Assembly: GCF_032362555.1 (NCBI RefSeq)
Contig: NC_083507.1
Span: 6,761,001 to 6,825,000, forward strand
DNA length: 64,000 nt
Reading direction: 5' to 3'
Origin: Amyelois transitella
Taxonomy: Eukaryota > Arthropoda > Insecta > Lepidoptera > Pyralidae
Position 1 is the stretch's first letter, and each line of letters starts with the position of its first letter. Positions 4,186 to 59,737 of the stretch are shown here, in pieces. Both the position numbers and the translations under genes were made by a program. The notes under the pieces are model-generated. The model did not search any database. It was not told the origin of the DNA and worked only from the letters and a program-made list of their open reading frames with translations.

Positions 4186-23876
<19,691 letters not shown>

Positions 23877-25821: not shown

Positions 25822-26683
25822 TCAAATCAACTGCACTTTACCATTCTTGACTAAATCTGATATGGGTTTGTACTGAAGAATATGTTGTGATCCAGCTAAA
25901 ACAAATATAACTAATTAGTCTACATCTATATGAGACACATCTATAAGCCAAATCATTAAATAAGTATTTCACAAACTTAAACTCTGCCAGTGTTATAAAA
26001 GATTAGGGAATAACTTTGTGGCTTAAGGAAAACTTAGATCTGCAAATCCACGAAGTGAATGCAACTGGAGCAAATGCATAAAGTAGGAATAGTCTAAAGA
26101 TACCTTCTAAATCTATCTCTTCATCTTGATCTCCAAAAATATCCTCTAAGACAACTCCAGCAACAGATTCATTTGCCCGAAGAAACACATGTGTTTGTAA
26201 ATTAGGATGAACTGCCATCTTATTCATTTCAAAAGATTGCATATTATTTGGAACTTTATCTAGAATAACAGTCTTCAAATGATTCTCCATGTTTAGTAAA
26301 TATTCTTGGGCATAGTTAAATTCTGATGGGGTCAGATAATTTGTACCAGATTCAATTCGTTGTTTTTCTTCATTTAAAATAGGTATACAATATTTTTCAA
26401 TTTTACTTATCCTTGTTCTAAGATAATTACAAATGATAAACTTGATTCTGCTGAGTTCCATTTTATGAATAGACGCTCGAAGATCTGTTTTGGGCAATTT
26501 ATTTATATTACGCTCCATATGCTGAATCTGGCCAAGCATACACTCAACCATATCATTTCGATGCGGAAGTATTTCTGGCGCCAACCGTTCGTTTTGCCAT
26601 GCACTTTGAAGAGTTTTCAAAACCGTATCAGCTGTAATTTCTTCTTCTTCATCACTAAGTTCTATATCATCGTTTAGATCCAT
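25822..26683 (-). CDS. Sld5: GINS complex subunit Sld5 (GINS4), complete
   Basis: Two exons on the minus strand, 26683-26104 and 25895-25822, with a 208-bp intron (donor gtatct, acceptor tttag) and a split codon G|CT. The product is 217 residues; human GINS4 has 223. Recognisable family blocks are an acidic N-terminus, then LQSAWQNERLAPEILP, then IVEC-like DMVECMLGQIQHMERN, then MELSRIKFIICNYLRTR in the alpha-helical GINS A domain, and finally HILQYKPISDLVKNGKVQLI at the C-terminus. Known role: Sld5 forms the GINS tetramer with Psf1-3, part of the Cdc45-MCM-GINS helicase at replication forks. The ATG at 26683 begins MDLNDDIELSDEEEE. Confidence 0.95.
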
Positions 26684-29359: not shown

Positions 29360-32300
29360 ATGTCATTTGCAAGCTTAGATCCTGGACCCGGCGCGTCTGC
29401 GCTTCAGGCTTGGGGCGGACAGGTCGCTGCTTATGGTTCATCTAACCAGACAGTTGTTGACAAAGTGCCACCAGAACTACTGCATTTGGTTGACCCACAC
29501 TGGTAAGCTTAGTTGGTCTGAAATAATAATAAGTATTTACTCCATATTGACTTATCAATATCAATACATCATCAATCATTAATATAAAAATGTTAGCACA
29601 TTGAGTATAAGTAGAAATAGTACCTAACCGAGCATGAATTTAAAAAAAGTCTGTCTGTTTGTATATTTGTTTGTACACGCTAATCTCTGGAACTACTGAA
29701 TTGAATGAAACTTTTTTTGTTGTATAGCTCTTATACCTGGTCAACATATAGGATATTATTTATTTTGGGATTTAGAACAGCTGATGTAGAACCATAATAG
29801 CTCAGCTAAACTATAGGAAATATCGAAAAGATGTCTTTACAAAAGTTCTACAGCCCGATGAGGATTTTCGAAGATCGAAGAAAATCGAAGATCTGGAACA
29901 CCTGATGCGAAACCATTGTAGACTAGCTAAATCATCCGAATTATGGAATAGTCGTCTTAACGAAAGTTGTTTAACCTGATGAGCATTTCTTTTGGCGAAA
30001 AAAAAATTGGAAGATCTGGATCATGTGATGTGGTAACCAAAGGGACAAGTTACTCTGTAATATTTACAGAAATTATGTCTTAGCAAAAGTTGTATAATAT
30101 ATCGGTATTCATTAGAAACAAAAATACCAATCCTTTTTCTCTATGTAACATTAGTATACGGATTATGTGACAGTTTCGGGATATAATGGATTTTTGTTAA
30201 TCTAAATTATATCCTACGTTGAAATTTATTTTGGTGAATTTGACTAAATGTAATATCCTTAACCTCCGTATTTCCAATAACGAGCAAACAGCTAGGGATA
30301 CCGTTTTATTTATGCTTGATGTCATGTTATGCAGGTATCAGTTTCCTCCAATGAACCCATTATGGCACGGACTCTTGGGCTTTACTATTGGCGTCCTTGG
30401 TTTTGTCTCAATTACAGGCAACGGAATGGTCATCTATATCTTCACATCCACAAAGGTGAATTTATTTAAATATTCATTAATCTTGTTGTTTACTAACTTT
30501 GTCTCAATCCATGTAAGTAGTTTAACACTAATACATTTTTTCTTTATTTTAGAGTCTGAAGACACCCTCAAATTTGCTAGTAGTTAACTTGGCTTTTTCT
30601 GATTTCCTGATGATGTGCGCAATGTCTCCAGCTATGGTTATAAATTGTTACTACGAAACATGGGTGTTTGGTAAGTTTTTTGTAAAGATTTTCGCCAATT
30701 TGGTTTCCGCCAAAAAGATATTCTTTTAAATATTGATATATAATTTAAAAACGTAATATTTGTAGGTGCTCTAGCTTGTGAGCTATACGCTTGTGCTGGT
30801 TCATTATTTGGATGCGCTTCTATTTGGACAATGACCATGATCGCTTTCGACCGATACAATGTGATTGTGAAGGGTATTGCCGCCAAGCCTATGACCAACA
30901 ACGGTGCTCTTCTGCGCATTTTAGGAATCTGGCTCTTTTCTCTGGCATGGACTCTCGCTCCATTCTTCGGATGGAACAGGTAAGTAAATCCTCAATCATT
31001 AATCGAGGCACCATTATTTGAGCTTTACCGTATAACCATTTCACTTAGTTGGTTTCTGACTCGTTAGTCTGGCGCCTTATAGTTTCGTTAAAGGGTTTCA
31101 AAAGATATCCAGTTATGCCGCCAGAGTGGTTCCTTTGAGCTCTCAGTGTAATGCGGCTATTTTGATTAAATAATTACTTATTTAACATGTGTCTTATTGC
31201 AGATATGTTCCTGAGGGCAACATGACAGCCTGCGGTACTGATTATTTGAGCAAAGACTGGTTCAACCGCAGCTACATCCTTATCTACTCAGTATTTTGCT
31301 ACTTTATGCCCCTTCTGCTCATTATCTATTCTTATTTCTTCATTGTGCAGGCAAGTTTTTACTTATAATACGTTTTTTTTTTGTATAAACTTCTGTACAT
31401 ATTTAAGTCTTTAATAATCATCTGTTTATGATATTTAGGCTGTAGCTGCTCACGAGAAAGCCATGAGAGAACAGGCCAAAAAAATGAATGTTGCTTCACT
31501 GAGGTCTTCTGAAGCGGCGAATACAAGCGCAGAATGTAAATTAGCCAAGGTACACGACAAAATTGCAAATTAAAATATCTAACCATGTATAAATAAGTAT
31601 TTTTGAATAGACATGTGGAATATAGTCACTGGTCACAGGCTTAAAAAAATATTTTATTATGCTTTTATGTTTTTACAGCTATCTGTTCCTAAATGCCGTA
31701 TTTTTTGTTTACGTCAGGTGGCGTTAATGACCATTTCTTTATGGTTTATGGCCTGGACTCCATATTTGGTCATCAACTACACTGGCGTTTTCGAAAGCGC
31801 ACCGATCAGTCCATTGGCTACCATTTGGGGCTCGCTTTTCGCCAAGGCTAACGCTGTATACAATCCTATTGTATATGGCATCAGGTTAGTAAAGTTTGTG
31901 ACCGCTTGATTTTGTTAGGATCAAACAAACATCTAATCGTCACAGAACCCCCTATGAAAAAAAAAAGATCTAAGTTATAAGGGTCAGAATTTATATACCT
32001 ATATCCAATTCAATTAATCCGTCCAAATTTCTCATAAGTTTGGTAGTTATAAGTAAATACATTCATACATACATATAGTAACATCTACTTATATCCCTTG
32101 CAGGGTTGACAGAGCCAAAAGTCTTGAAAAGACTGATAGGCCACGTTCCGCTATTTGGCTTAATGATAGAATTGAGATTCAAATAGTGACAGGTTGCTAG
32201 CCTATCGCCTAAAAAAATAATCTTAAGTTTATAAGCCTATCCCTTAGTCGCCTTTTAAGACATCCATGGGAAAGAGATGAAGAGGTCCTTCTTTTTCCCA

Positions 32301-43620: not shown

Positions 43621-45936
43621 TTTTATCGCATGTATGTGTATAAAAAATGGGAATAAATTATCAGCGCGTAATATTTCTTTAAATAGTTATGTTATAAACT
43701 TTATTTCGCCGATTTATAAACCTCAGACCAAATTATAAAAACACACTTCCTCAGTGTTACATATCACAGTTCCAAAATAAAATAAGAATCATGAAAATAA
43801 CAAAAGCCAATAGATCTCTATTTAGTTTGTGGGTGAACCGGTCGCCGGTCGTCTGTTTAGTCATTAGTCAAAAATGTCAAATCCACGTCAAAATGCCAGT
43901 TTGAGTGATTTGACAGCTAACGCCATTATTCTAAACAAGCTCAAAAACTCATTTTGACATTGACTGAAATACAGTCAAAAGTGTTGCCTTCATCATCAAC
44001 AACTTAGAAAGAAAGAAAGAAAAATCTTTATTTGGCGCAAGATGTGACATTACATTTTCATTCATAAACATAGAAATAAAAAATAAAAAAAATACATGAT
44101 GCGACCAAAAGGGTTTCCACTCAGCATATGCATGTGTATGATGAGGTTACACAATGCGCTGTTCAGTGGAACCTAGTACAGAGGCTTTGCCATTCAATAT
44201 GAAGGATACATATTAAAAATATCAACACAAAATAACAAGAAGACAGCAGTGCTAGGGAGTTAATATATGTTGAGTATGAGCGTGAGTGTAACTATGTTCT
44301 TATTGTTGAAGCAAAGTAGACAAAAGGTAGGCAGAAGGAAACTACAGAAAAATGCAAAGGGTATGCAAAGGTTTGCTGTTTTGTATTAGATTGAGATTGT
44401 AGTAAATAACTTTTCAGTTTATCTTTGAAGTGTGATACCGTAGTGCTTTTGAGTAAATCAAGGCAAGAGTGAACTGATCCTTACAAATAATCCCCAGTTA
44501 GTGAGCGCACATTAAAAGAGGTGACAGACATAACAGTAAGAGTGGAACATTTAACCACAGATTTAAAATCATTACTAAGTCTTTGATTCTTACTCATTAC
44601 CAACACAACCAACTTTCTGTTTAATTAATACGTAACGCGAGCGATAATTCGCGCTCAACCACCACAAAAATAAAATCCTCTGCCAGGCTAAGTTTATGCG
44701 CTAAGAAACATGATTAGAAATCACTGACCTCAATTTTTCACTGGCCTGTTCCATTAGCACAATTCAAACAAAATACTTTTTTTTACTCATAGACAGAAAA
44801 TCTGGTCATTTTAAAGGGGTTTTTTACTGAAACTTCTTGCATCTGACTCTTATGATTTGATAGATTAGACTCATAGTCTTAACTTTGGCACGCTGGCCAC
44901 GCCTATTTTAGATTTCTATTATGTTTACATTTGGTGTTAAAAGCGCGTTTGCTTTATGACGCCCTGTCCCTGTCTGTCACCTACTTATTACGCCAACATT
45001 GCAAGATTTTGAAGCTGTCAATTATTAGCAGTCACCCAAATCTAGGGATGTGACATTGCTGATAAAAAATCGATTTTTATGTAATCGATTTATTTTTTAA
45101 GTATGAAAAATCGATTAACAAATAATCGATTTTTCTAAAGAAAATAATCGATTTTATTATATTGATAGATTTTTTCCTAATTTTTCTATTTATGTCAAAG
45201 TAAACGCCATATACATTATATCAATAGATTTATTCATTAAAAATAAACAACAGAAACAGTAAGTTCTTATATACATACATAAAATCACGCCCCTTTCCCG
45301 GAGGGGTAGGCAGAGACTACCTCTTTCCACTTGCCTGCACTGCATAGTTACCACTGCATAGTTCTTATATAATCAACACAAATTAAAGTTATTAACAATC
45401 AAGTTTAAAAAATGAAGTTTCAGCAACTAATAATGAATAAAATATCAACTGAATGTCGGTAAAATACTGTTCATCGACTAATTCCATCTAGAGAATGTTT
45501 GATTAAATTAATCATCTTAACTGTTTTAAGAGCACAGAAAGAATGCACAAATGGCGTTAATGTAATATGTTATAAGTATTCTTTGGCAGTTCGCGTTCCG
45601 GGCTCCAAGCCAGAAGACAAAAACGTAATGTCGGAGTGCATTTATTGTATGATTATAAAAATCGATTCTTAATCGATTATTAATTTTAAAAAAATCACAT
45701 ATAAAAATCGATTTTTACTTTCAAAAAATCGATTTTTAATCGATTTTTTCCATAATCGATTTTTTTTTCACATTCCTACCCAAATCACTTGAGTTGTCAA
45801 ACCAAATACCTAGGTGTTTCGATGAAACTTCTGCAATTTGCGTAAAATAATGAAAACTCTTACTGAATTCTTTGTTTTGTAATTTTTTCATGCCACATGA
45901 ACTTAAATTTATGATTCAAGAAAATATTTGGTCATC
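43621..45936. other. Spacer between divergent COMMD2 and AP-3 delta genes
   Basis: Both genes start outward from here. The first 350 bp next to COMMD2 has several TTGACA/TGTCAAA-like words. About 44005-44560 begins with (GAAA)n and 'atctttatttggcgcaagat' and may be an old retroposon tail, not identified with certainty. A hAT-like MITE fills 45043-45778. The remaining 158 bp before the AP-3 start is presumed promoter and 5' UTR. Confidence 0.6.
45043..45778. mobile_element. hAT-like MITE with 8-bp target site duplication
   Basis: Terminal inverted repeats TAGGGATGTGA (45043) and TCACATTCCTA (ending 45778) differ at one position. They are flanked by the exact 8-bp repeat CCCAAATC at 45035-45042 and 45779-45786. 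Both subterminal regions are crowded with ATCGATTTTT words in both directions. A short piece of the LINE fragment seen at 46240 ('cccggaggggtaggcagaga', about 45296) lies inside. No transposase is encoded. Confidence 0.88.
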
Positions 45937-48900
45937 ATGGCTTTGAAAAAAGTCAAAGGAAATTTCGAAAGAATGTTCGATAAAAATCTCACGGATTTAG
46001 TACGAGGAATAAGAAACAACAAAGATAATGAGGTATTTGCATACATTACTTGTATAGGTACATTTTGCAGCCATAACGACCTGTCTGCCTTTACATTGAT
46101 AATAACAATTTGCTTTGTATTCTTCCGTTTTAGGCTAAGTACATAGCACAATGTATGGAAGAAATTAAGGTGGAATTGCGACAGGATAACATTGCCGTGA
46201 AAGCTAATGCAGTTGCCAAGTTGACATATGTGAGTAGATAAATCATTCATACATAAAATCACGCCTTTCTCCTGGAGGGGTAGGCAGGGACTACATCTAT
46301 CCACTTGCCACGATCTCTCCATCCTTTTTTCGCTTCATCCACATTCATAACTCTTCATGCAATCTCGGCGGTTTCGCGTACTCTAGACCTGACCTCTTGC
46401 CAGGACTTCCTTTATTTCATCAGTGTATGTTCATCTAGACATTCCCACTCCTACCTTTCCATCCACACTCCTTGTACATAAATTATTCATCACAAATAAA
46501 TCTTTATATAGAACTTACTGAATATCAACATATACCTATAAAATTCAGAAGCATCTAACAATACCCCCACATCAAGGAGTTGTGAAATAAATTCATAACT
46601 CAGTCTTTTATTAGATGTGTCTTATAAGATCTATTCTGAATATTCAATTTCTCATGTGTATAATTTTTTTTAGCTTCAAATGCTAGGATATGATATATCA
46701 TGGGCAATATTCAACATAATAGAAGTCATGAGTTCAAATAAATTTACATACAAGAGGATTGGCTATCTGGCTGCCAGTCAGTCATTCCATGCAGATTCCG
46801 AGTTGCTCATGTTGACCACAAATATGATTCGTAAGGATCTGAATGCTCAAAATCAGTATGAAGCAGGACTTGCCCTCAGTGGACTCAGCTGTTTCATTTC
46901 TCATGATTTGGCAAGAGATCTTGCCAATGATATCATGACCTTGGTAAGGAAATTGTTTAAAAAATAAAAATAAAATAAAAGAAGTTTAAGTAAATAAAGC
47001 TGTGCTTTATTAATTTACATATAAGATATAATCTTGTTTTCAACAGTGTAATTTGATCATTATAAAACCTGTTTGATATTATGTTTGTAGGTATTAATGA
47101 TGAGTTACAATTAGTTTTATATGCTTGCAGATGAGCTCTACTAAACCATATCTCCGAATGAAGGCCGTACTTATGATGTACAAGGTATTTCTAAGGTATC
47201 CTGAAGCTCTAAGGCCGGCTTTCCCTAAACTGAAAGAAAAGTTAGAAGACCCTGATCCTGGTAAATTTTATGTATTTATTTAGTATATAATTTATCTTGG
47301 AATAGATATTTCAAGTTGAAAAAATGTGTATCACAAACATATTTTGTAACATGTTTTCTACTTTGCTTATCATAAAAAGACAAAGAATGATTTTTGCACA
47401 TATCTGTATGTACATACTTAAAATATTTAATTGTTACAGGTGTTCAGTCAGCAGCTGTGAATGTTGTCTGTGAACTAGCTCGGAAGAACCCCAAGAACTA
47501 CTTGTCTTTAGCACCTGTCTTTTTTAAGTTGATGACAACCTCAACTAATAACTGGATGCTAATTAAAATAATTAAATTGGTAAGTTTATTTTATTTTTTT
47601 AATTTAAATGCATTCAGTCTGTACCTACCTACACACATTTTAAATATACTCTAGTAATTTTTTGTCTAATAAAATTAAGTTTAACCTATATGCTGTTTTC
47701 TAAAGCAGTGATTGGGTTATCTAATGTTTTGTGATTTATATGAATTGTTCTAGTTGAATACAGTTAGGTACCAACATAATAGAGAATTAATAATAATTAT
47801 GCTCTGCTTAATTATATGTAATTATATTAAATGTTTGTATTAAGCAAAATCCTAAGATCTGACATGATACCAGTAGTATTTTTGAGATGATATTTTCTAA
47901 TCCGATTTTGCATGTTGATTTCTCCGCAGTTTGGTTTAATGACACAATATGAACCAGACATCGGCAGAAAGATAACTCAAAGCCTCATAGATCTGATTTG
48001 CAGGTACCACAGAACCATGAACGAAGTTTAGCAGCTAGACTTATCACTACACCTCACCATTACAGTTTTCTAACAACTACACATACAATGGTTTATCATA
48101 TTAGTGTTGCTACTTTTAAACAGTACAGTCAGAAATGTTGTTTTTAGAAATCTTTTCCTGTATTTGTCATCTACATATATATAGTCACGTCTATATCCCT
48201 TACGGTGTAGACAGAGCCAACAGTCTTGTCGGGACTGGAAGGACATGTTCAGCTGTATGGCTTTATGATAAAGCTTGCCTATGGCCTACTCTGTTGTCGC
48301 CTTTTACGACATCCATGGTAAAGATATGAAGTATTCTATTCTAAATTGTCAGAAAGAAAGAAAGCTGATGGCAAGGTAATAACAAAGCTTTTGATTTTGT
48401 TGTTGTAAAATATGTTAATAATAATAATAGTTACTTACAAACATACTTTAACTGTAGCGTTTAGTGCTAGCTTAAAGATATTTTTTTCATGGTAAATTTT
48501 AGTACTTGCATAGCATAATTTTCGCTAATATAAAGTAAATTCATCTAATATGATAAACTTGTGTAAGAACATGTTTTCCCACATTATAACACACATATAA
48601 AATTAGCACAAGTCACATTTTATATTATGTTTGCTGCTAAATGATTAGAAATTAGCATCAACCAAGCAGAGTGACAAACAAAATTCTCTCTTTGTGTGAA
48701 ATTGATGAATATTAAAATGGAAAATATGAAGATTTTTTTTGACTACTAGCATATATACCATCATCCCCGTCCATAATATGCTGTCATGACATGAGCTAGT
48801 CTTATGTAGTTTCATTGTGTTTGTTGCAGTTTGGTGCCTTAACCCCATTAGAGCCTCGACTTGGCAAGAAACTGATAGAACCATTAACTAATTTAATACA

Positions 48901-51900
48901 TAGGTGAGTCAGTTATTGTCAAATGGAAATACTCGATTTGGTCTCTATGGGGTGAAAGGAAATTATAATTGTTGTTGCTTAGAAATCTGGTATTAAATAT
49001 AACTTTGTTTCAAAGATGTTATAAAATTGATATTGAAATGATATATGCCAAACATTTTATTTAAAATAATAATACTCTAAATTACTAATTGATCACTAAA
49101 ACTGGCTGCAGTCACGCTTTTTTTTTCTGGTTATTTTTTTACGTAAGCTTTTACATTGTAGGACCAAGAGCTGATTGTATTAATCAATCATAAATGCTAT
49201 ATACGCATACACTACTTTGTTTGCTTTAAAATAATCGCTTAAGAAAGTAACTTATTAGCTGGCTTGCAATGCTGTTTAAAAAAAGATATTTGAGAGAATA
49301 ATTGTATTAGTTTCTCAATCTTACAATGTTGGTCCTGTGTAAGGTGTACAATTTTCCCTATACTTATATATCATTTTCAGTAGGAATTAAAAAGAAACTG
49401 CTTCTTTGTTGTTATCGTCACTTATTCCATCTACAAAGTAAGTATCGATCCCAAGACTCATCTTAAGTTTAATGCGATAGCACTCTAGCAATCTAATAAA
49501 TAAAAATATAATCCAGAAATTCCTAGTCCCAAAACCCGTTTCGGGTTGCAATTGGTGACAAGTAAAAATTAAGAATACTGAATTTCTCTTTATTTTAAGT
49601 TTTATTCTTATTTTCCTTGATGTACATAAATTTATATAAAAAAAGAGGAGGGAATATAACATAATCTCAATCTTCAAACCTCAATAATGCAGGAAGAATA
49701 AAACTGTAGTTCCCTAAAAGAGGTACAGTCAAAACTTAACTTGGAGTATAGGGGAGCACTAAGGGAGTAAAGTAGTCGGAAATTTTTGGCGAGCGGAACC
49801 TAATTTAAATGTGTAGTGAACTGTTGTATACATATTTACGTTGTATAAAATCTTTAAGTAAATTATTCCTAGTAAGTACTTCAAAAACAACTCGTTTCCA
49901 ACAGTACGTCGGCGATGTCGCTACTGTACGAGTGTATCAACACGGTGATCGCGGTGCTCATCAGCATCAGCTCGGGCATGCCGGGCCACGCCGCCTCCGT
50001 GCAGCTGTGCGTGCAGAAGCTGAGGATACTCATCGAGGATAGCGATCAGAACTGTGAGTCGCATTGTACTGTCACCAAACGCCAGATATGTCTATCGTGC
50101 TGTACAAGTGTATCCACACGGTGATCGTGATTTTTTGTGATGAGAGACTTTGATATCGACCGATTTATATAAAGTTTATGCACGTAAAATGTACAACAGG
50201 TGGTTTAGGCATTATCTGCCAGTCGAACCTTTCGATAAAACTTAGATGTATGTACTGACTGAATGCTTATATACGCATTGTTTAATTTTTCAGTGTTCAG
50301 ACATTTTAATAAATGTTATAAAATCCGCTTGCCGTTAGCTTTGTATTCTCCTAAAATAATTTATTTCATAATATACTTTTATTGTTTAGTGAAGTACTTA
50401 GGACTGCTGGCCATGTCGCGAATATTGAAGTCCCACCCGAAATCGGTGCAGGCGCACAAAGACCTGGTGCTAGCGTGTCTTGACGACAAGGACGAATCTA
50501 TCCGACTGCGAGCCCTGGGCTTGTTGTATGGAATGGTGAGTACCAATCTGTTTGTAAATACGGATAAATCTTCCAAATTGAACAATGCCGCCTTCGATCA
50601 AGTATAAAAAGCTCCCTCCGCGTTGAACTAAAATTCCTATTAATCCTGTTCGTTACCCTGGGAATATATAGAAACAAAGCGTTGCTAATGTTTGACCTCG
50701 GCTAGTTACTTCACACAAAAATTCATCAAAGTTAGTTCAGCCATTTAGCTGTCATAGTGTAACATACAGATAGACAGACTTTCGCATTTAAAATATTAGT
50801 ACAGATAAAGATTTAACAAAGATTTAAATATTCCTTCCTTAGCGCATGTAGCGCAGTAGCGATGCCGACCGATTGTATGAAATCCTAGATGTTTCAACTG
50901 TTTGTTGATAGATAATTAGCTATTTATATTCACAAACTCAAAGCAATGATCATTTTCGAATCGTAAATAGCTAATCACATATGACTTCAACATTGCCTGT
51001 GGAAGCTTTCCGCCCAGATGTAACGTCTCAGCAGGCGGAAGGTGATAGATAAATTAAATTCTTATAAAATTTTTATTAAAGGTATCCAAGAAGAATCTAA
51101 TGGAAATAGTGAAGAAACTCATGGTTCACATGGAGCGCGCCGAAGGAACATTGTACCGTGACGAGTTATTGACGCGCATGATAGAGATTTGCTCTCAGAA
51201 CAACTACCAGCATGTGGTAGATTTCGAATGGTACGTCACCGTATTAGCCGAGCTCACGGAGATGGAGACCAGTGCTAAACATGGTGAGTTGCTTTTAAAT
51301 AATCGAGTATATCATCACGTCATAAACCCACATAGATGAAAGTGAAACCGTCGAGTCTTTTCGAGGCTGTTGGGTCTGTCTACCGTGTAAGGGATAATCA
51401 TCTTTTCATCTCGGAGGGATGGCAGACAATATATATTTTCATTTGCTACAATCTTTGCTGAATATTTATTTACTTTTTTTTTGTTATGAAAGCATATAAC
51501 GCTGAAGGTCAAGTACTCAACGTTCCAATAAAACAAAATATATACGAGTATTAACAAAACAACAAAATTGTAATCGAATTATCTCAATTAAGTTCTCTTC
51601 CAGTCGATTACAAAGTCAAGGACAGTCAGTTTTTAAATTTATGTTATTTTTACATTTGTTTTCAGGTATAATCCTCGCCCGTCAGCTGACAGAAGTGGGC
51701 GCTCGAGTGGCCGACGTCCGCGCGTTCGCCGCCCGCGAGAGCGCCGCCATCTGCGCTCGTTGCGCCGCCTCCACTCCGGGCCCCGCCTCCAGGGAGGTTC
51801 TGTACGCCGCAGCGTTTGTACTCGGGGAGTACTGCGAGTAAGTATATAGATACCAGTTCCGACGTCTGTTTTATTTAAACATATGTTACATATGTTATTT

Positions 51901-54900
51901 TTTGTTTAAACCGTGTGGCAACATCTCAGATTAAGAAGAAGACGGTTATTATTTTGCCTGATTTCAGAGAGGAGACTGTGATGCGCGAGTCGATCTCTCC
52001 TCTCACTTTGTGCGCCGGCGTCGGCGGCGGCCACATGAGAGCACGTGCTGTGTGTGTACACGCGGCGCTGAAGCTGGCCGCCAAGCTGCTGCTGCGGTAC
52101 GAGCGAGCGGGCCGAGCGCAGCAAGCCAGCGAGGTGAGCAGCATTGTGTACTGGCGGTAGTGGCGGTGTGTGTGTGTGTGTGTGTATACGCGGCGCTGAA
52201 GCTGGCCGCCAAGCTGCTGCTGCGGTACGAGCGAGCGGGCCGAGCGCAGCAAGCCAGCGAGGTGAGCAGCATTGTGTACTGGCGGTAGTGGCGGTGTGTG
52301 TGTGTGTGTGTGTACACGCGGCGCTGAAGCTGGCCGCCAAGCTGCTGCTGCGGTACGAGCGAGCGGGCCGAGCGCAGCAAGCCAGCGAGGTGAGCAGCAT
52401 TGTGTACTGGCGGTAGTGGCGGTGTGTGTGTGTGTGTGTGTACACGCGGCGCTGAAGCTGGCCGCCAAGCTGCTGCTGCGGTACGAGCGAGCGGGCCGAG
52501 CGCAGCAAGCCAGCGAGGTGAGCAGCATTGTGTACTGGCGGTAGTGGCGGTGTGTGTGTGTGTGTGTGTACACGCGGCGCTGAAGCTGGCCGCCAAGCTG
52601 CTGCTGCGGTACGAGCGAGCGGGCCGAGCGCAGCAAGCCAGCGAGGTGAGCAGCATTGTGTACTGGCGGTAGTGGCGGTGTGTGTGTGTGTGTGTGTACA
52701 CGCGGCGCTGAAGCTGGCCGCCAAGCTGCTGCTGCGGTACGAGCGAGCGGGCCGAGCGCAGCAAGCCAGCGAGGTGAGCAGCATTGTGTACTGGCGGTAG
52801 TGGCGGTGTGTGTGTGTGTGTGTGTACACGCGGCGCTGAAGCTGGCCGCCAAGCTGCCGCCTATCTCGACACACTACTACACATTTCAATAAAGTTACTG
52901 GGTTTGCAGTTTTATTCACTACTTTACTGCAACACGGCCTTTTATAACACAATGTGTGTGTGTTCATCGTTTATATTACAAGAAGTTATTCAATTGTTAT
53001 AAACAGGTGGTGCGTGAAACACTAGCTGGCATGCGGCCACTTCTTTGCAGCGAAGACATGGAGGTTCAAGAGCGGGCCCACAACGCCACCGCCTTGCTGA
53101 CGTTGGTATTACGTCGACTCGATCCCACGGACGAAAATCTCCCACCGGCTGATATGCCTGATATTGCCACACTTGTAGACCATGAGCAGAGGTAAAACCA
53201 CTGAAATAACTTATAATACTATTTTTTCTGTGCTTTATACCGAAGCAAATTATTATAACAGCGGGAAGACGATACCTGGACGTTCATACGATAACGATGA
53301 GGCAAATATCATGCCTCTCGCTCTTACTCGTCGGTTAAACTTATAGATCCGTAGAAAGGAATAATATGACATTTCCATTGTCAAAGTTTATGAATCGAGG
53401 AGACATATTATCAGTATGCTTCTGGATGATTAGACCCTTTTTTGAATCGATACGTTACAGAAGACTTATGTTTAATTTTCCAGTAACGGCCTTGAGAAGG
53501 AAGCGGAGGATGTGAACATGAATGGTGAGAATGGCCAGGGCTTCAGCGGGGGGCTGATAGAAGAGCTGGCAGATTTGTTCGACGGTGAACTCAAACCCGT
53601 CGCGCCTAAAGCACAGAAGAAAGTACCGATGCCACCTGAGTAAGTTTTATATTTTAATTGCTTAATGAATGCTTAACTATTCTTATTGTTTTAAAACTTC
53701 TTTCAAAAATATTAAACCTCGCAATGGCAGGGATTAAATAAATAGAACAATTTATTTACATTAGCTGAAATTTAACTGTCAGAAAATTTTTCTTTCCCCT
53801 TTCTCTTTCTAATTGGTGTAATAAGAAAGAGACAGGAACCAATTTGATAGAGAAGTAATAGAAAATTCTCGAGGTCAGTTATCCACGTAAATTCATTAGT
53901 CAAAACAATTTTTTACGAGACTAGTATGTTGCAATACATCTGTTTGATTATTCCAGCCTAGACCTCAGCCAATGGTTATCGGTGTCGCGCTGGTCCTCCG
54001 ACAGCTCCTCCTCGGAGGACGAGGAGGCCGAGGCGGTGTTCGCGGCGCCGCCGCCCGACGGGCGCCCCACGGCGCAGTTCACGCCCGAGGAACTGCAAAT
54101 GGTGAGTCGGCGTGTCTCTCGTCAATGGGTGCGTAAAGTATACGTAAGCGTAAGTGATTGGACATTAGCCATTGTCTGTTTGTCTCGCGCAAATCACGCC
54201 TGAGGAGCTTGAGCTGGTGCGAGATGGCATTACGTTACTGCGTCCCCACTTCTATTGCATCATATCACTCTTCAATTATTAATAAAAACATATGAACGCT
54301 ATGTTTGGTAATCGGTGTCGCGCTCTCGTCTCCTCGGAGGAGAAGGACGGCAAGGCGGTGTTCGCGGCGTCACATCACGCTTTCCGCCCGTGAAATTCAC
54401 GCCTGATGAACTAGAAATGGTGCGATATGGCATTATATTACTTAAGCGACTACCAATCATGGGCATGTCACTCGATCACTAAAGTCAACTCAATCATTGG
54501 CAGTCGATGTCGTGTTAGTCGTCACACAGTTCCTTGTTTTCAGTCAGACATTTCAGTTTTTGGCAAAATAAGTGAAATCAGAAATGCCAGAAGTGCTATG
54601 AAAAGCAGTGAATTATATATGTTATATGTTTTTTCACAGCTACGCGAGGCGCGTCGCCAAGAGCAGGCTAACAATCCTCATTACCTGAAAGATGACTCCC
54701 CGCGCTCCTACCAACAGGACGATATCCCCGTCGCCGAGATCGCATTGGAAGTGCCACTGCAAATACACAGTATGTTTAGTAACCTTGCTTCCATTACCAG
54801 TTTGTTTAGCACGTATTAGCTACGTTTTTTGAAGAGTATATAAATCACTTTAATAAGATCATATTTCTTGTACATCACGCTCATCTTACAAAGATTGAGA

Positions 54901-57355
54901 ATTAATTTCTTGTTGTGCATCTAGATCTCATCATAATGAACTATGGATATGATAATGAATAAAAACGGCTTTCCCGGCGGTTAATTCTAATAGTTATAGG
55001 TAATTATAACAAATTATATCTTGTTTAAATAAATTGTAATTTAGAATTTAAAGCCCACAAATAAGTTAAATAGTGGTTATACTTTTTGGCCTTTGTTCGT
55101 GCTTGGAATGAAGACTGAACCAGTCTTCATAAGAATGAAATTTAGAAGTGTTATTTATTGAATTAAACTCAATAAAAATAATTTAATAATACATTGTTGC
55201 AGCTAAGAGATCTGACAAGTACTTAATGTCGAAGGAAACTTCAAAGAAAACTAAGAAAGAGAAACGGCCGTCCAAGAAGCGAAAGAGCAAAAAAGATAGA
55301 CTTTCTTCTGAATCCGACAGCAGTGGTAAGTTATGTCAAGACTGTAAATTTCGAATTTCGACAAAGTTTCAACTTAGAAAATATATGCTTCGAAAAATTT
55401 ATTTGATTATTTATCATTAGACCGACAAAACTCATTTTGACAAGACACACCTTTGAATTACTGTAATTCGAGAAAACCTTTTGATAAATTAATGATAATT
55501 TTTTTAGGTTTTACATTGTATGTAAAATTTTAGCGTTATGCACAGTACGTTGAGTACTTATCGTCAAAACACATCTGTTGTAAATGGAACTGGTTCCATT
55601 ATGGAACTGTATCATGGTACTAGTGTCAACAAAAGCTGTTTACTGCTTCCAGCATCACTATTTTTATGCCGTCGAGTATATGTTATCTTCTCTTGGATTT
55701 TATCCTGGTTACATACCTTGTGCCGGTACCAATAGAAAAAAGAATAGGACTATTCCATATCTTTCCCATGAATGTCGTGAAAGGGGATTAAGGGATAGGC
55801 TCATAAACCTGGGATTCTTCTTTTAGGGGGTGTGCTAGCAACCTTTCACTATACATATACATCTCAATTAACAGCTGAACGTTACCTATCATTCTCAAGA
55901 CTGTCGGCTCAATCTACCCCGCAAGGGAGCCGATAGTAATGTGTTAACGAATACAATGTCCAGAGGAGGCCCCCGCGTGGTCGCGGCCGGCGGTGGCGGC
56001 GGGCGGCGAGCTGCCGGCGGGCGCGGCGCCGTCCGACGACGAGCCCGCGCCCGCGCGCGACGACCCGCACCGCGCGCTCGACCTCGACCTCGACCTGTCA
56101 GTATGCCGCGCCTGCCGCGCAACCTACGAGTATCAATCAAACGACTTCTTTACTCTAAGCTCTAACTGTATTTCCTTGTAATCCATGAATTTTATATATT
56201 CATTATATATTCAATTATACTTTGGCAAAAAAAGAACCGGCTTCCAATCGATATCCTTCTTTTTGAAGATGGTGAAATTTCGAAAACCTTCCAAGTGTAA
56301 TTAACACTTTCCTGATAACCGCGTCAAAATCGGTTTAGCCGAAAGCGAGATAATCGCTTACAAAAATATTACTGGTGAAACTAAGAACCACCATTTTTTA
56401 TAATTATTAGCCGACCCCCACGAAACTCAAAAGCTTTATGTACCTCTATTTTATACTTTCCGACTTTTAAAATCCCATGCGAATGGGTTAAGGGCCTTTT
56501 TCTTTCAACTTCATGTCATCACTACAATTGGTTGGAGCCCTTTCCATGTTTCTTTATTAATAGAACACACCGCCTTTTATATGACACAGGTGAACACTTC
56601 CGCATGCTCTGTAATGTGTGTGGAGCAGCATTTTCATATTACTGGGCAATGCCATAGACTATTGAGTTTTGAGACCATTGACTATTTAATGTTGCTTTTC
56701 TTCTTACAACCAAAGGCGCTGAGGAGCGGTCATTATATCAATTATTTGTTCTTTCTAGGCCCCTTCGCGAAGAAGAACTATTAACGTCCAGAATAAATCA
56801 GTATCCGTCACCCGAGAGTGGTCTTTTACATAAAAAAGCAAAAGAATCCAAGAAAAACAAATCTTCCGCCAAAGATGGCACTGAAAAATCTAAGAGAAAG
56901 AAAGATAAGAAAACTAAACATAATAAAGATTTAGTTTTAATGCTAGAAGAGAATAAGAACGCAAAGGAAGGGTTGCTTATAGAAGACCTGAGCAAACCTG
57001 ATGAGGTAAAGGGGGCGGGCGACGGAGAAACACTAGTCGACAATCATGTGAAGAACAGTAAGACTGAAAAATATAAGAAGTCGAAGAAGGATTCTAAAGA
57101 CAAAGAGCTCAAGAAAAAGAAGGCCTCCAAGAAAGGTAAAAACATTTTTCCCTTAGATACATTTATTTTTTGTGATTCCATACTACTTGTAATAACAATG
57201 TTACGGATGATTTTTAAACTAAATCCAAATAGCGTAGACAATAAACTTTAAAATTTCTTTCAACCGCGGTTTTTCCTGTTTCAGATAAGCATGAAACAAA
57301 AACGGGTTATGAAGAAGCATTAGGTATATCAACCCCGAGCAAGGAGGTTATATAG
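45937..57355 (+). CDS. AP3D1: AP-3 complex subunit delta (garnet homologue), complete (19 exons plus one alternative exon)
   Basis: Exons: 45937-46032, 46134-46229, 46674-46943, 47131-47260, 47440-47579, 48830-48903 (or 47930-48003), 49905-50053, 50390-50535, 51082-51283, 51666-51837, 51968-52133, 53007-53191, about 53484-53639, 53957-54101, 54640-54769, 55203-55325, 55964-56096, 56759-57135, 57285-57355; about 986 residues. The trunk matches delta-adaptin closely: MALKKVKGNFERMFDKNLTD, ISWAIFNIIEVMSS, KPYLRMKAVLMMYKVFLRYP, LYECINTVIAVLIS, KYLGLLAMSRILK, VSKKNLMEIVKKLM. PVAPKAQKKVPMPP and QEQANNPHYLK mark the hinge, followed by lysine-rich tracts. The C-terminal ear known from vertebrates is not seen. 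Known role: AP-3 sorts cargo from endosomes to lysosome-related organelles; fly garnet mutants have pale eyes. Confidence 0.95.
46240..46480 (-). mobile_element. Non-LTR retrotransposon 3' fragment
   Basis: Plus text 'tcctggaggggtaggcaggg', 'ccacttgccacgatctctcc' and 'catgcaatctcggcggtttc' is the same series as at 18098 and 23195. It lies in AP-3 delta intron 2, 11 bp after the donor. Confidence 0.7.
47930..48003 (+). CDS. AP3D1: Alternative exon 6a of AP-3 delta, candidate mutually exclusive exon
   Basis: A 74-nt open segment between acceptor tctccgcag and donor CAG|gtacca, in phase 0 and ending in phase 2, exactly like canonical exon 6b at 48830-48903. It encodes F-G at positions 1-2, T5, E-P at 8-9, G12, K14, L19 and L-I at 22-23, all shared with exon 6b (10 of 24 full codons identical and 5 more conservative). 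If the donor is skipped, the reading runs nine more codons (ending NEV) to a TAG at 48028-48030. Exon 6b is the one matching the human protein; 6a is the diverged twin. Confidence 0.75.
48172..48335 (+). mobile_element. Copy of the 'cttgcggggtagacagagcc' repeat between exons 6a and 6b
   Basis: Contains 'agtcacgtctatatccctta', 'gtgtagacagagccaacagt', 'ggacatgttcagctgtatgg' and 'tcgccttttacgacatccat', with an internal deletion. Confidence 0.7.
50084..50129 (+). pseudogene. Decayed partial copy of AP-3 delta exon 7
   Basis: Thirty bases past the exon 7 donor, the intron repeats the start of exon 7 with point changes. 'tgtacaagtgtatccacacg' here corresponds to 'tgtacgagtgtatcaacacg' in the exon, and 'gtgatcg' follows in both. 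No acceptor and no donor of its own are evident. Confidence 0.75.
51318..51425 (-). mobile_element. Fragment of the 'cttgcggggtagacagagcc' repeat
   Basis: Plus text 'cgtcgagtcttttcgaggct' and 'gttgggtctgtctaccgtgt' is the complement of the family core. It lies in AP-3 delta intron 9. Confidence 0.55.
52061..52856 (+). repeat. 128-bp minisatellite made from exon 11 end, donor and intron start
   Basis: The segment starting cgcggcgctgaagctggccg occurs at 52061, 52189, 52317, 52445, 52573, 52701 and 52829, exactly 128 bp apart. Six units carry the exon 11 end GCCAGCGAG and the donor gtgagc (donors at 52134, 52262, 52390, 52518, 52646, 52774). The seventh breaks off after about 28 bp. Each unit ends in a (TG)n run. 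The copies are almost identical, with one A/C difference seen in the unit reaching 52189. The first copy is the true exon end. Confidence 0.97.
54184..54520 (+). pseudogene. Decayed tandem copies of AP-3 delta exon 14 in intron 14
   Basis: Copy 1 (about 54184-54230) reads ITPEELELV where the exon reads FTPEELQM. Copy 2 (about 54304-54425) keeps 'aatcggtgtcgcgct' and 'tcctcggaggagaaggac', then 'aaggcggtgttcgcggcg' and the codons FTPDELEM. Copies 1 and 2 share a further downstream block ('gtgcga...atggcatta'). Copy 3 (about 54488-54520) keeps only 'gtcgatgtcgtgttagtcg'. Frame changes in the middle of copy 2 and loss of splice sites make them non-functional. Confidence 0.8.
55705..55935 (-). mobile_element. 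Inverted copy of the 'cttgcggggtagacagagcc' repeat
   Basis: Plus text runs 'gtgccggtaccaatagaaaa', 'tgtcgtgaaaggggattaag', 'ataaacctgggattcttctt', 'gctcaatctaccccgcaagg'. It ends about 30 bp before the AP-3 delta exon at 55964. Confidence 0.75.
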
Positions 57356-59737
57356 TGTACATTACATAGAATCATATTGTAACGTTCCAATGAGGGAAAA
57401 AATGTCGTCGTTTAAAATCGTATCAGTATGGCAAGGACGGCGATACACCCGTTAACATTTTTCTTATTGGTACGAATTGTATTTGGCCTTCGTCTTTAAC
57501 ATTATCTTGAGCTCGTCACAGTGCAATCATTGTTTGAACAATTTAGTTTTTTATTTTTTATGATTAGTCCACCAGCATGAAATATATGTAGGCATTGTTT
57601 TCATTCGTATTACAAATGAACCATGACCACTTAACTAATGATGTTATATTCTTTAGGCTATATGTATTGTAAAAAGGCAAACAAAAATAAATACAAAAAT
57701 ATATAATCATGTACAGTTTATTAAAAGCTATATGGAATAAATAATAGTCGTTTTTGTTTAAAATATCCAAATACAATAAATGATTTTGACAAACTGGTTA
57801 ACAAATTTCTTTATACTGTTACAAAAGACAAAATGTTTACAAAAGGGAGTTTCCGTTTGGTCAAATTTTTCTCACTCTCCGACGGCGGCCGCACAGACTC
57901 GGACACACTCCTCCGCCGCCGCCGCCACCACCACCTCCACTCTTCCCTCCTCCAGGTTTGTAAGAGATCGCAACCTATTTCATCAAAATTATTCAGTTTC
58001 TGTTATGTAATAAAAGGGTTCCAAAACAAGATACAGCTGGTCCCATTAGAAAAATATCAATATGCAGTAAGAACAATGATATATTTTTTCAAGTCATTAG
58101 TATTTGTAAATAAATACCTTTGTTTTAATATTTTTTGTTATACTATTGTAATAATCGTTAATCTTCCTATAAATAAATAAGGAAGGTGAAACAACAAAGT
58201 ATTTTCTATTTCGGTATATGTAAACTAGCTGTTAACCACGCATCCTTAAAGCATTAGCAACAGCTAGAAATTTGCACATGAATATCCTTTTTTCTAATAT
58301 TTGTAATTGATTTTCCATGGTGTTAAAAAAACCGATAACGCACACAAATATAATAAAAATGTTTCTTTTTTTTTGTTTAAGTATGTAACTATTAGTTCGA
58401 TTAAGATGAAATTGGGAACCCATTCTATTAATACATAGTGAGCCATAAAAAAGAAACAATCACTAAAAGGCAAAAATTCATTGTTTTTGCTGTATAACAC
58501 CATGATGGAAAAAATGAAATATTGGGGGGCGCAGAAAATACTATGATAATAGAGGAAGATCAAAACAACTGAACAGATCTAAATTAGATTTTATTACGTT
58601 TTTCTCAAGCCAATAAATTAAATTATATCAATATACAAGATCAAACAATATTGTACTTTAACTTTCCGACCAAGTCCTCATATTTATTTCTCCAATTGGA
58701 TACGTAAATAATTACAAGGAAGAAAGAACATGTACATAAAGTACTAACATACAATTATTGCGCTGATACACGTCTTGACGATGTCTTAAGACATTGATAA
58801 TATTTCAGAACAATTACATCAACAGTAACCTGCACTACAGTTATTTTCCACTATTCAATAGTTTAAATAAACAATAAATTCTTAACACGAAATGACTGCA
58901 TCACGTTGTGTAATAACGCGGTTTCCTTTCGATACTATAAGAAACGCGTATAATTTATACTTTACAATCTCCCATACTTGAGGTACATATCATATGACGT
59001 GTAAATGCTATATTAATCAAATAATTTATAACAGAAGTCATAGGAGAAGTAACAGAAAGTGGCGGATTATAGAACCCCACAAATTGATTTAAGCTAACTA
59101 CTTAACAACCAACAATATCTTAATCTACTAACAATTCAATGTTATTTAAATAAATAAATAAAAATGAACGAAGCTATTCTACTTAAATGTTGTCAAACAA
59201 CTCGTATTCCCGTAACAATGCTTTACCAATATTCTTTTCTCGACTACAGCACATACACTTACATTATATTTGATAAATTAATTTATCACAAAGGCTGTCA
59301 AAAATATATCCATAAAATTGTGTAAATAGAAAAATAAAACCAAAAATATCTAAAAACTAAAACAATACTCTGCATAAATCTTAAAAGTTAACATCGAAAC
59401 ACGAGTCGATACATCAAAGAGATAGTGAAATTACAATAATATGATCGAATGTTTCTCGTAAGATGTGATGGCGAGGTCGTAAGACTGATGGTAATGTGGC
59501 GAATAATGGGGCTAAACACGGACAAATATCTAGATAGACTCTGTGAGTAGTAAAAGGGCGATAAATGAACCTCTTTTTTCATTCGGCATTTGTACTGATC
59601 GTCATCAACTAAACTGTAAATATATCTGTAAAATATACCAAAAAAAAGTTGGTCAAAATATAAAACATCCTATTGGCTTCACATTGACCAGAAAGAAGTG
59701 GTTCATCTAGATCTAAGTCCGCTTCTGTTAATACTGT
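57356..59737. other. 3' UTRs of convergent AP-3 delta and succinyl-CoA ligase genes
   Basis: AATAAA at 57736-57741 fits an AP-3 delta 3' UTR of about 0.4 kb. A compact GC-rich triplet block at 57880-57955 stands out (see findings). The remaining 1.8 kb is AT-rich without a recognised repeat and is probably mostly 3' UTR of the minus-strand gene. Confidence 0.55.

What the first reader, a model, noticed from the sequence alone, without database searches (positions are those of the whole stretch)
47930..48903. Candidate mutually exclusive exon pair in AP-3 delta (6a and 6b)
Two 74-nt exons with the same entry phase, exit phase and splice-site frame encode homologous segments of the delta-adaptin trunk: 10 of 24 full codons give identical residues and 5 more conservative ones, while the DNA has diverged. 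Exon 5 ends in phase 0 and exon 7 begins with the last base of a codon, so either fits. Using both gives a stop five codons into 6b (S-L-V-P-stop), and using neither shifts the frame into exon 7. Only one-of-two yields full protein. This would change one HEAT-like repeat of AP-3 delta and so perhaps its partner or cargo choice. I know of no described case in this gene.
Basis: partly seen in the sequence, partly recalled or inferred. Interest (0 to 1): 0.87.

Follow-up and report, generated by a model that had tools for sequence, protein, structure and literature searches.

The report
Swappable exon pair in AP-3 delta
An insect gene for a cargo-sorting coat protein carries two versions of one small exon, of which an intact protein can use only one, so the animal can probably make two forms of a protein part that is otherwise almost unchanged between insect and mammal.

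Summary
In the AP-3 delta gene (+ strand, from 45937) two 74-nt exons, 6a (47930-48003) and 6b (48830-48903), sit between exons 5 and 7 with the same splice phases. One-of-two gives an open frame; both or neither breaks it. 6b equals a solved delta-1 chain at 24 of 24 residues; 6a shares 10 of 24 with 6b, 16 of 24 BLOSUM-positive. 6a is not a decaying copy: 38 of 74 bases differ, dS was not estimable, and 0 of 200,000 simulated neutral copies of 6b kept as much protein similarity. The best candidate in 3 Mb of simulated sequence scored 18 against 52. Most likely it is a true mutually exclusive pair, at least partly enforced by frame and mRNA decay. The longest perfect RNA stem did not exceed shuffles, so docking/selector pairing is unsupported. 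An Rbfox-like site before 6a and a YCAY cluster after it are untested leads. No RNA reads or related insect genomes could be examined, so expression, tissue pattern and spread stay open. The kind is well known; none of the papers listed by my ten searches showed it in this gene, but several lists were capped and supplements were unreadable.

The parts
47440..47579 (+). AP-3 delta exon 5 (residues 199-244 plus a shared codon), upstream partner, ends in phase 0
   Evidence: 41 of 46 residues equal to the solved delta-1 chain
47909..47914 (+). TGCATG, Rbfox-like element 16-21 nt before exon 6a; the only one of 15 plus-strand TGCATG in the window that lies in the 11.4-kb gene
   Evidence: motif meaning from PMC3585155 passages; function here inferred
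47930..48003 (+). exon 6a, alternative version of residues 245-268 (FGLMTQYEPDIGRKITQSLIDLIC)
48004..48063 (+). five YCAY motifs within 60 nt after 6a (48007, 48015, 48044, 48054, 48057)
   Evidence: 0.37% of 60-nt windows reach 5; 0 after 6b, 0 before 6a, 3 before 6b; found after looking, untested
48830..48903 (+). exon 6b, canonical version of residues 245-268 (FGALTPLEPRLGKKLIEPLTNLIH)
   Evidence: 24 of 24 equal to the solved delta-1 chain
49905..50053 (+). AP-3 delta exon 7, downstream partner, starts with the last base of a codon

Best explanation
6a and 6b are a tandem-duplicated, mutually exclusive exon pair. Each pre-mRNA is spliced 5-6a-7 or 5-6b-7, giving two delta-adaptins that differ at 14 of 24 residues covering (inferred from sequence) the end of one helix, the E-P turn and the next helix of a HEAT-like hairpin (residues 245-268). 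Shown: anatomy, frame logic and protein-level constraint on 6a. Inferred: 6b is the default form; 6a, with the poorer splice sites, is probably a regulated, tissue-limited variant. Double inclusion or skipping yields an early stop and is expected to be removed by mRNA decay, so the frame enforces one-of-two at the protein level even if splicing leaks. Swapping the hairpin surface (R254D, P250Q, L251Y, P262S; net charge +1 to -1) while keeping most of the core retunes delta's contacts or the stiffness of its solenoid rather than abolishing AP-3 assembly.
For: One-of-two frame logic. 38 of 74 nt differ; third positions 18 of 24 against 11 and 9, P = 0.007 for 18 or more at third positions. 7 of 10 identical residues use different codons; NG86 dN 0.56, dS not estimable. 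Neutral decay of 6b with the same number of changes and no indels: 0 of 200,000 reach the observed score; identity of 10 or more in 0.25%; open frame in 23%. At the 8 positions where 6b equals the yeast chain, 6a is identical (5) or L-to-M/I (3); 0 of 300,000 neutral copies do this (the allowed L/I/M set was chosen after seeing 6a). The isoform with 6a still matches Adaptin_N at 407 bits, with 6b 425. 6a/6b score ratio is 0.42; a published MXE search used 15% as its minimum (its score may be computed otherwise). Of 9 exons scanned (1-5, 6b, 7-9; plus strand 44000-58000) only 6b has a real second copy.
Against: No transcript evidence. By a matrix from only 8 acceptors and 9 donors of exons 1-10, 6a scores -1.12 and -1.31, while held-out 6b scores 8.80 and 10.82 and the training sites 9.00-15.92 and 4.22-11.91 (the last are scored on their own matrix); 6a's U1 match, 6 of 9, is in the range 5-7 of the others. 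No relatives were reachable to show conservation. No RNA stem above shuffles. Two of 9 positions that are hydrophobic in both 6b and yeast are Y251 and T260 in 6a; 7 of 9 alone is reached by 1.8% of neutral copies, 8% of the open ones, so it is weak evidence by itself.
Confidence: 0.83

Rival explanations
1. 6a is a relic or decaying duplicate, never or hardly spliced.
For: Weak splice-site matrix scores; no RNA evidence.
Against: Protein-level similarity far above neutral decay (0 of 200,000), third-position excess, 8 of 8 moth-yeast invariant positions held or L-to-M/I.
Confidence: 0.08
2. 6a is a poison or regulatory exon: its added inclusion with 6b (frame shift) lowers AP-3 delta output through mRNA decay, and its protein is not used.
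For: Double inclusion gives a stop five codons into 6b.
Against: A poison exon needs no protein similarity; 6a's similarity is at protein more than DNA level.
Confidence: 0.05
3. A true pair, but mutual exclusion is set by competing long-range RNA pairings (docking/selector) as in Dscam, 14-3-3zeta or Mhc, rather than by RNA-binding proteins and frame. This overlaps the best explanation and differs only in mechanism.
For: A 14-bp perfect stem, arms starting at 48091 and 48545, inside the 826-nt spacer.
Against: 6 of 60 shuffles of the spacer and 4 of 12 shuffles of 47580-49904 reach 14 bp; both arms lie in the same intron, so they do not compete. Imperfect and G-U stems were not tested against shuffles.
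Confidence: 0.1

Closest known systems
Tandem-duplicated mutually exclusive exons whose joint inclusion shifts the frame (class described in PMC5740500; passages read)
   Same: Neighbouring homologous exons of equal length and phase; joint inclusion shifts the frame
   Different: Gene is AP-3 delta; 'AP3D1', 'AP-3' and 'adaptin' do not occur in that main text; splicing not yet observed here
C. elegans unc-32 exons 7a/7b and egl-15 5A/5B (PMC3585155; passages read)
   Same: Two exons, choice set by RNA-binding proteins; in egl-15 a UGCAUG in the upstream intron represses 5B, as a TGCATG lies just upstream of 6a
   Different: Trans-factors and tissue choice are shown there; here there is only a motif found after looking
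Dscam / 14-3-3zeta / Mhc docking-selector clusters (PMC6071210; passages read)
   Same: Insect mutually exclusive exons
   Different: No perfect stem above shuffles here
AP-3 delta / AP3D1 / garnet (solved chains 9c58_D, 9rtx_d, 7p3x_A)
   Same: The gene itself; the 6b form is the canonical sequence
   Different: The 6a form has 10 of 24 residues in common with the canonical segment

Membership tests
Mutually exclusive exon pair | Neighbouring exons of similar length with the same phases | tested here: met
   74 and 74 nt, same entry and exit phase
Mutually exclusive exon pair | Homologous protein sequence | tested here: met
   10 of 24 identical, 16 of 24 positive, score 52 of 124
Mutually exclusive exon pair | Compatible GT-AG splice sites on both | tested here: met
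   Both AG...GT; 6a sites weak by a small matrix
Mutually exclusive exon pair | Joint inclusion or skipping gives no intact protein | tested here: met
   Stop or frame shift
Mutually exclusive exon pair | Junction reads from each exon to both flanks, no stable 6a-6b message | not testable with these tools
   No RNA data held
Docking/selector RNA mechanism | Competing complementary sites beyond chance | tested here: not met
   Longest perfect stem reached by 6 of 60 and 4 of 12 shuffles; imperfect stems not shuffled; no covariation test possible
AP-3 delta (adaptin) | Trunk more similar to AP-3 delta than to alpha, gamma or epsilon | tested here: met
   843 bits to delta-1 9c58_D, 330 to 7p3x_A, 138 to gamma-1, 128 to epsilon-1, 122 to alpha-2
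Rbfox-regulated exon | (U)GCAUG near the exon, and dependence on Rbfox | tested here: inconclusive
   One TGCATG at -21 to -16 of 6a; dependence not testable

The most novel reading that the evidence does not exclude
Insects, or at least this lineage, toggle an otherwise near-frozen hairpin of the AP-3 delta trunk by Rbfox- and/or Nova-type tissue-specific splicing, making two AP-3 coats (for example neuronal versus pigment-granule or lysosomal) that differ in a trunk surface of unknown partner or in solenoid flexibility.
Probability: 0.25. Interest if true: 0.75.

Novelty: new member of a known kind. Interest (0 to 1): 0.55.

Why it matters
AP-3 serves lysosomes and related organelles such as insect eye pigment granules (abstract of PMC4643998; a role in synaptic vesicles is recalled). 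The 6b hairpin equals a solved delta-1 chain (mammalian by recall) at 24 of 24 residues, more than any of the 8 other exons compared, so it probably does something important. None of the delta point mutants in the passages I read of PMC13178560 lies in it. A natural second version gives a ready-made set of 14 changes to find out what that surface does, and suggests two AP-3 species where one was assumed.

Tried and rejected
Relatives: the first 368 residues of AP-3 delta against viral contigs (no pattern match) and genome contigs (21 stretches matched a pattern, 1 confirmed: a contig named uncultured bacterium matching 35 query residues, L001, not followed). Own-genome search: none held. No insect relative was available, so conservation is untested.

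dS: NG86 returned no value, the next method stopped with a math error and the ML estimate did not run; 'saturated' is my reading.

Docking/selector: inverted repeats I1-I9 and shuffles of the longest perfect stem gave nothing above chance.

Duplicates of other exons: the apparent second hits for exons 2 and 9 (46140, 51091) are shifted overlaps with the exon itself and were discarded; the other 6 of 8 have none above score 0. Exons 10 and later were not scanned.

One search used wrong exon borders and was replaced. The neutral simulation demanded 9 of 9 core positions (86 of 300,000 meet it), stricter than 6a itself (7 of 9), and is not used as evidence. One search uses 7 of 9 (5450 of 300,000; 1.8%, or 8% of open copies) and the 8 invariant positions (0 of 300,000).

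Papers: all 10 searches used. Papers found and listed: 213 found, 20 listed, 51 found, 12 listed, 11 found, 10 listed, 14 found, 12 listed,454 found, 15 listed. No title or abstract start listed shows an AP-3 delta mutually exclusive pair; unlisted ones were not seen. Passages by word search, not whole texts, were read in 11 papers. Zero occurrences in the main text: 'adaptin' and 'garnet' in PMC3228551, PMC3923563 and PMC7954323; 'AP3D1', 'AP-3' and 'adaptin' in PMC5740500 ('garnet' not asked); 'adapt' and 'garnet' in PMC3303723; 'isoform' and 'splice' in the Drosophila AP-3 paper PMC4643998. Supplements, where gene lists would be, could not be read, and Hatje and Kollmar 2013 was seen only as a reference, so a prior listing is not excluded.

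Structure prediction was not run: the tool takes proteins that the window DNA gives letter for letter, and a spliced protein does not meet that as I read it.

Full report
What is there. The + strand from 45937 encodes the delta subunit of the AP-3 adaptor complex: ten exons (1-5, 6b, 7-10) give 491 residues that match a solved AP-3 delta-1 chain over 490 of them at 843 bits, against 138 bits for the nearest gamma-adaptin. Between exon 5 (47440-47579) and exon 7 (49905-50053) lie two 74-nt exons, 6a at 47930-48003 and 6b at 48830-48903, both AG-exon-GT. With 6a or 6b alone the frame is open through exon 10; with both it stops five codons into 6b; with neither it is lost.

Which is canonical. 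6b (FGALTPLEPRLGKKLIEPLTNLIH, residues 245-268) equals the solved delta-1 chain at 24 of 24 positions, while the other 8 exons compared match at 69-90% (exon 9 over 62 of its 67 residues). Of 406 windows of 24 residues (406 is my count from the lengths compared), 23 are fully identical, 19 of them in one run, starts 238-256, over and around 6b. 6a (FGLMTQYEPDIGRKITQSLIDLIC) shares 10 of 24 with 6b.

Not chance, not decay. Among 109 open 74-nt AG/GT candidates on both strands of the window, 6a and 6b included, the scores are 124 (6b), 52 (6a), then 6; allowing lengths within 9 nt the next best in the gene region is 11. In 3 Mb of first-order Markov sequence the best of 1665 candidates scored 18. 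The exons differ at 38 of 74 bases; by codon position 11, 9 and 18 of 24, a third-position excess with P = 0.007. NG86 gave dN 0.56 and no dS, two other estimators failed or did not run, and 7 of 10 identical residues use different codons. Neutral copies of 6b with 38 changes and no indels stay open in 23%, keep 10 or more residues in 0.25%, and reach the observed score in 0 of 200,000. At the 8 positions where 6b equals the yeast chain, 6a is identical at 5 and L-to-M/I at 3; 0 of 300,000 neutral copies do this, though the allowed set was chosen after seeing 6a. A weaker test, 7 of 9 hydrophobic positions kept, is met by 1.8% of neutral copies. The 60 nt of intron on either side share no excess similarity (17 and 14 of 60 ungapped). 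So the duplication is probably old and 6a has been kept as protein.

What changes in the protein. F245, G246, T249, E252, P253, G256, K258, L263, L266 and I267 are kept; the 14 changes include P250Q, L251Y, R254D, I260T, P262S, T264I, N265D and H268C, with net charge +1 to -1. Two of 9 positions that are hydrophobic in both 6b and yeast become Y and T in 6a. Pfam Adaptin_N scores 425 bits with 6b and 407 with 6a. By sequence this is the end of one helix, a turn and the next helix of a HEAT-like hairpin (inference). The segment lies between the ARF1 site-2 residues (157-187) and the acidic patch (313-316) that were mutated in HeLa cells, and overlaps none of the delta mutants in the passages I read of PMC13178560 (12 of 29 places shown). 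Its partner is unknown. In yeast AP-3 the large-subunit solenoids flex (PMC8591511, passages), so a change in stiffness is as possible as a change in partner.

How one-of-two may be enforced. Frame logic alone gives one-of-two at the protein level; this is a recognised class, since exon-joining reads that shift frame are tolerated in the human MXE catalogue (PMC5740500, passages). The 826-nt spacer is not sterically short (general knowledge). The longest perfect stem in the spacer, 14 bp, is reached by 6 of 60 shuffles, and in the whole region by 4 of 12, so docking/selector pairing is not supported; imperfect stems were listed but not shuffled. 6a's acceptor (-1.12) and donor (-1.31, CAG/GTACCA) score lowest among exons 1-10 by a matrix from only 8 and 9 sites, while 6b, also held out, scores 8.80 and 10.82; 6a's U1 match of 6 of 9 is ordinary. 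Of 15 plus-strand TGCATG in the window, one lies in the 11.4-kb gene, at -21 to -16 from 6a, and five YCAY follow 6a within 60 nt (0.37% of windows reach this; 0 follow 6b). In C. elegans a UGCAUG in the upstream intron lets RBFOX proteins repress egl-15 exon 5B (PMC3585155, passages). By analogy 6a would be repressed where Rbfox is present and helped by a Nova/pasilla-type factor (the meaning of YCAY is recalled). These motifs were found by looking and not corrected for all motifs that might have caught my eye; they are leads.

What could not be done. No insect relative was reachable and no RNA data are held. The organisms of the solved chains (mammal, yeast) are recalled; one search does not name them.

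Verdict. Very probably a genuine mutually exclusive exon pair in AP-3 delta, a new member of a known kind. Its interest lies in the extreme conservation of the segment that is swapped. Ten searches of the held paper library listed no description of it, but five of the lists were cut short, and supplements and public gene annotation were out of reach, so a database may already list both isoforms.

Noticed in passing
window 52049-52857: The 3' part of AP-3 delta exon 11 (51968-52133) and its 5' splice site lie in a 128-bp tandem array of 6.3 copies, 99% alike, so exon end plus GTGAGC donor occurs six times (matches start at 52125, 52253, 52381, 52509, 52637, 52765). Reading past the first donor meets a stop after eight codons.
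   Followed up: partly
window 30219-30587: An exon of an arthropod-type opsin; the two solved sequences matched are both Kumopsin1 (jumping spider by recall). Pfam gave no match.
   Followed up: no
window 26003-26683 (-) and 7923-8276 (+): GINS subunit SLD5 ORF on the minus strand, and a piece of an ABC transporter transmembrane region (Pfam).
   Followed up: no
window 57285-57355: The delta reading frame appears to end at TAG 57353-57355 after a lysine-rich hinge (exon border by eye; frame). I did not test whether ear-domain exons follow; open stretches downstream were only listed.
   Followed up: no
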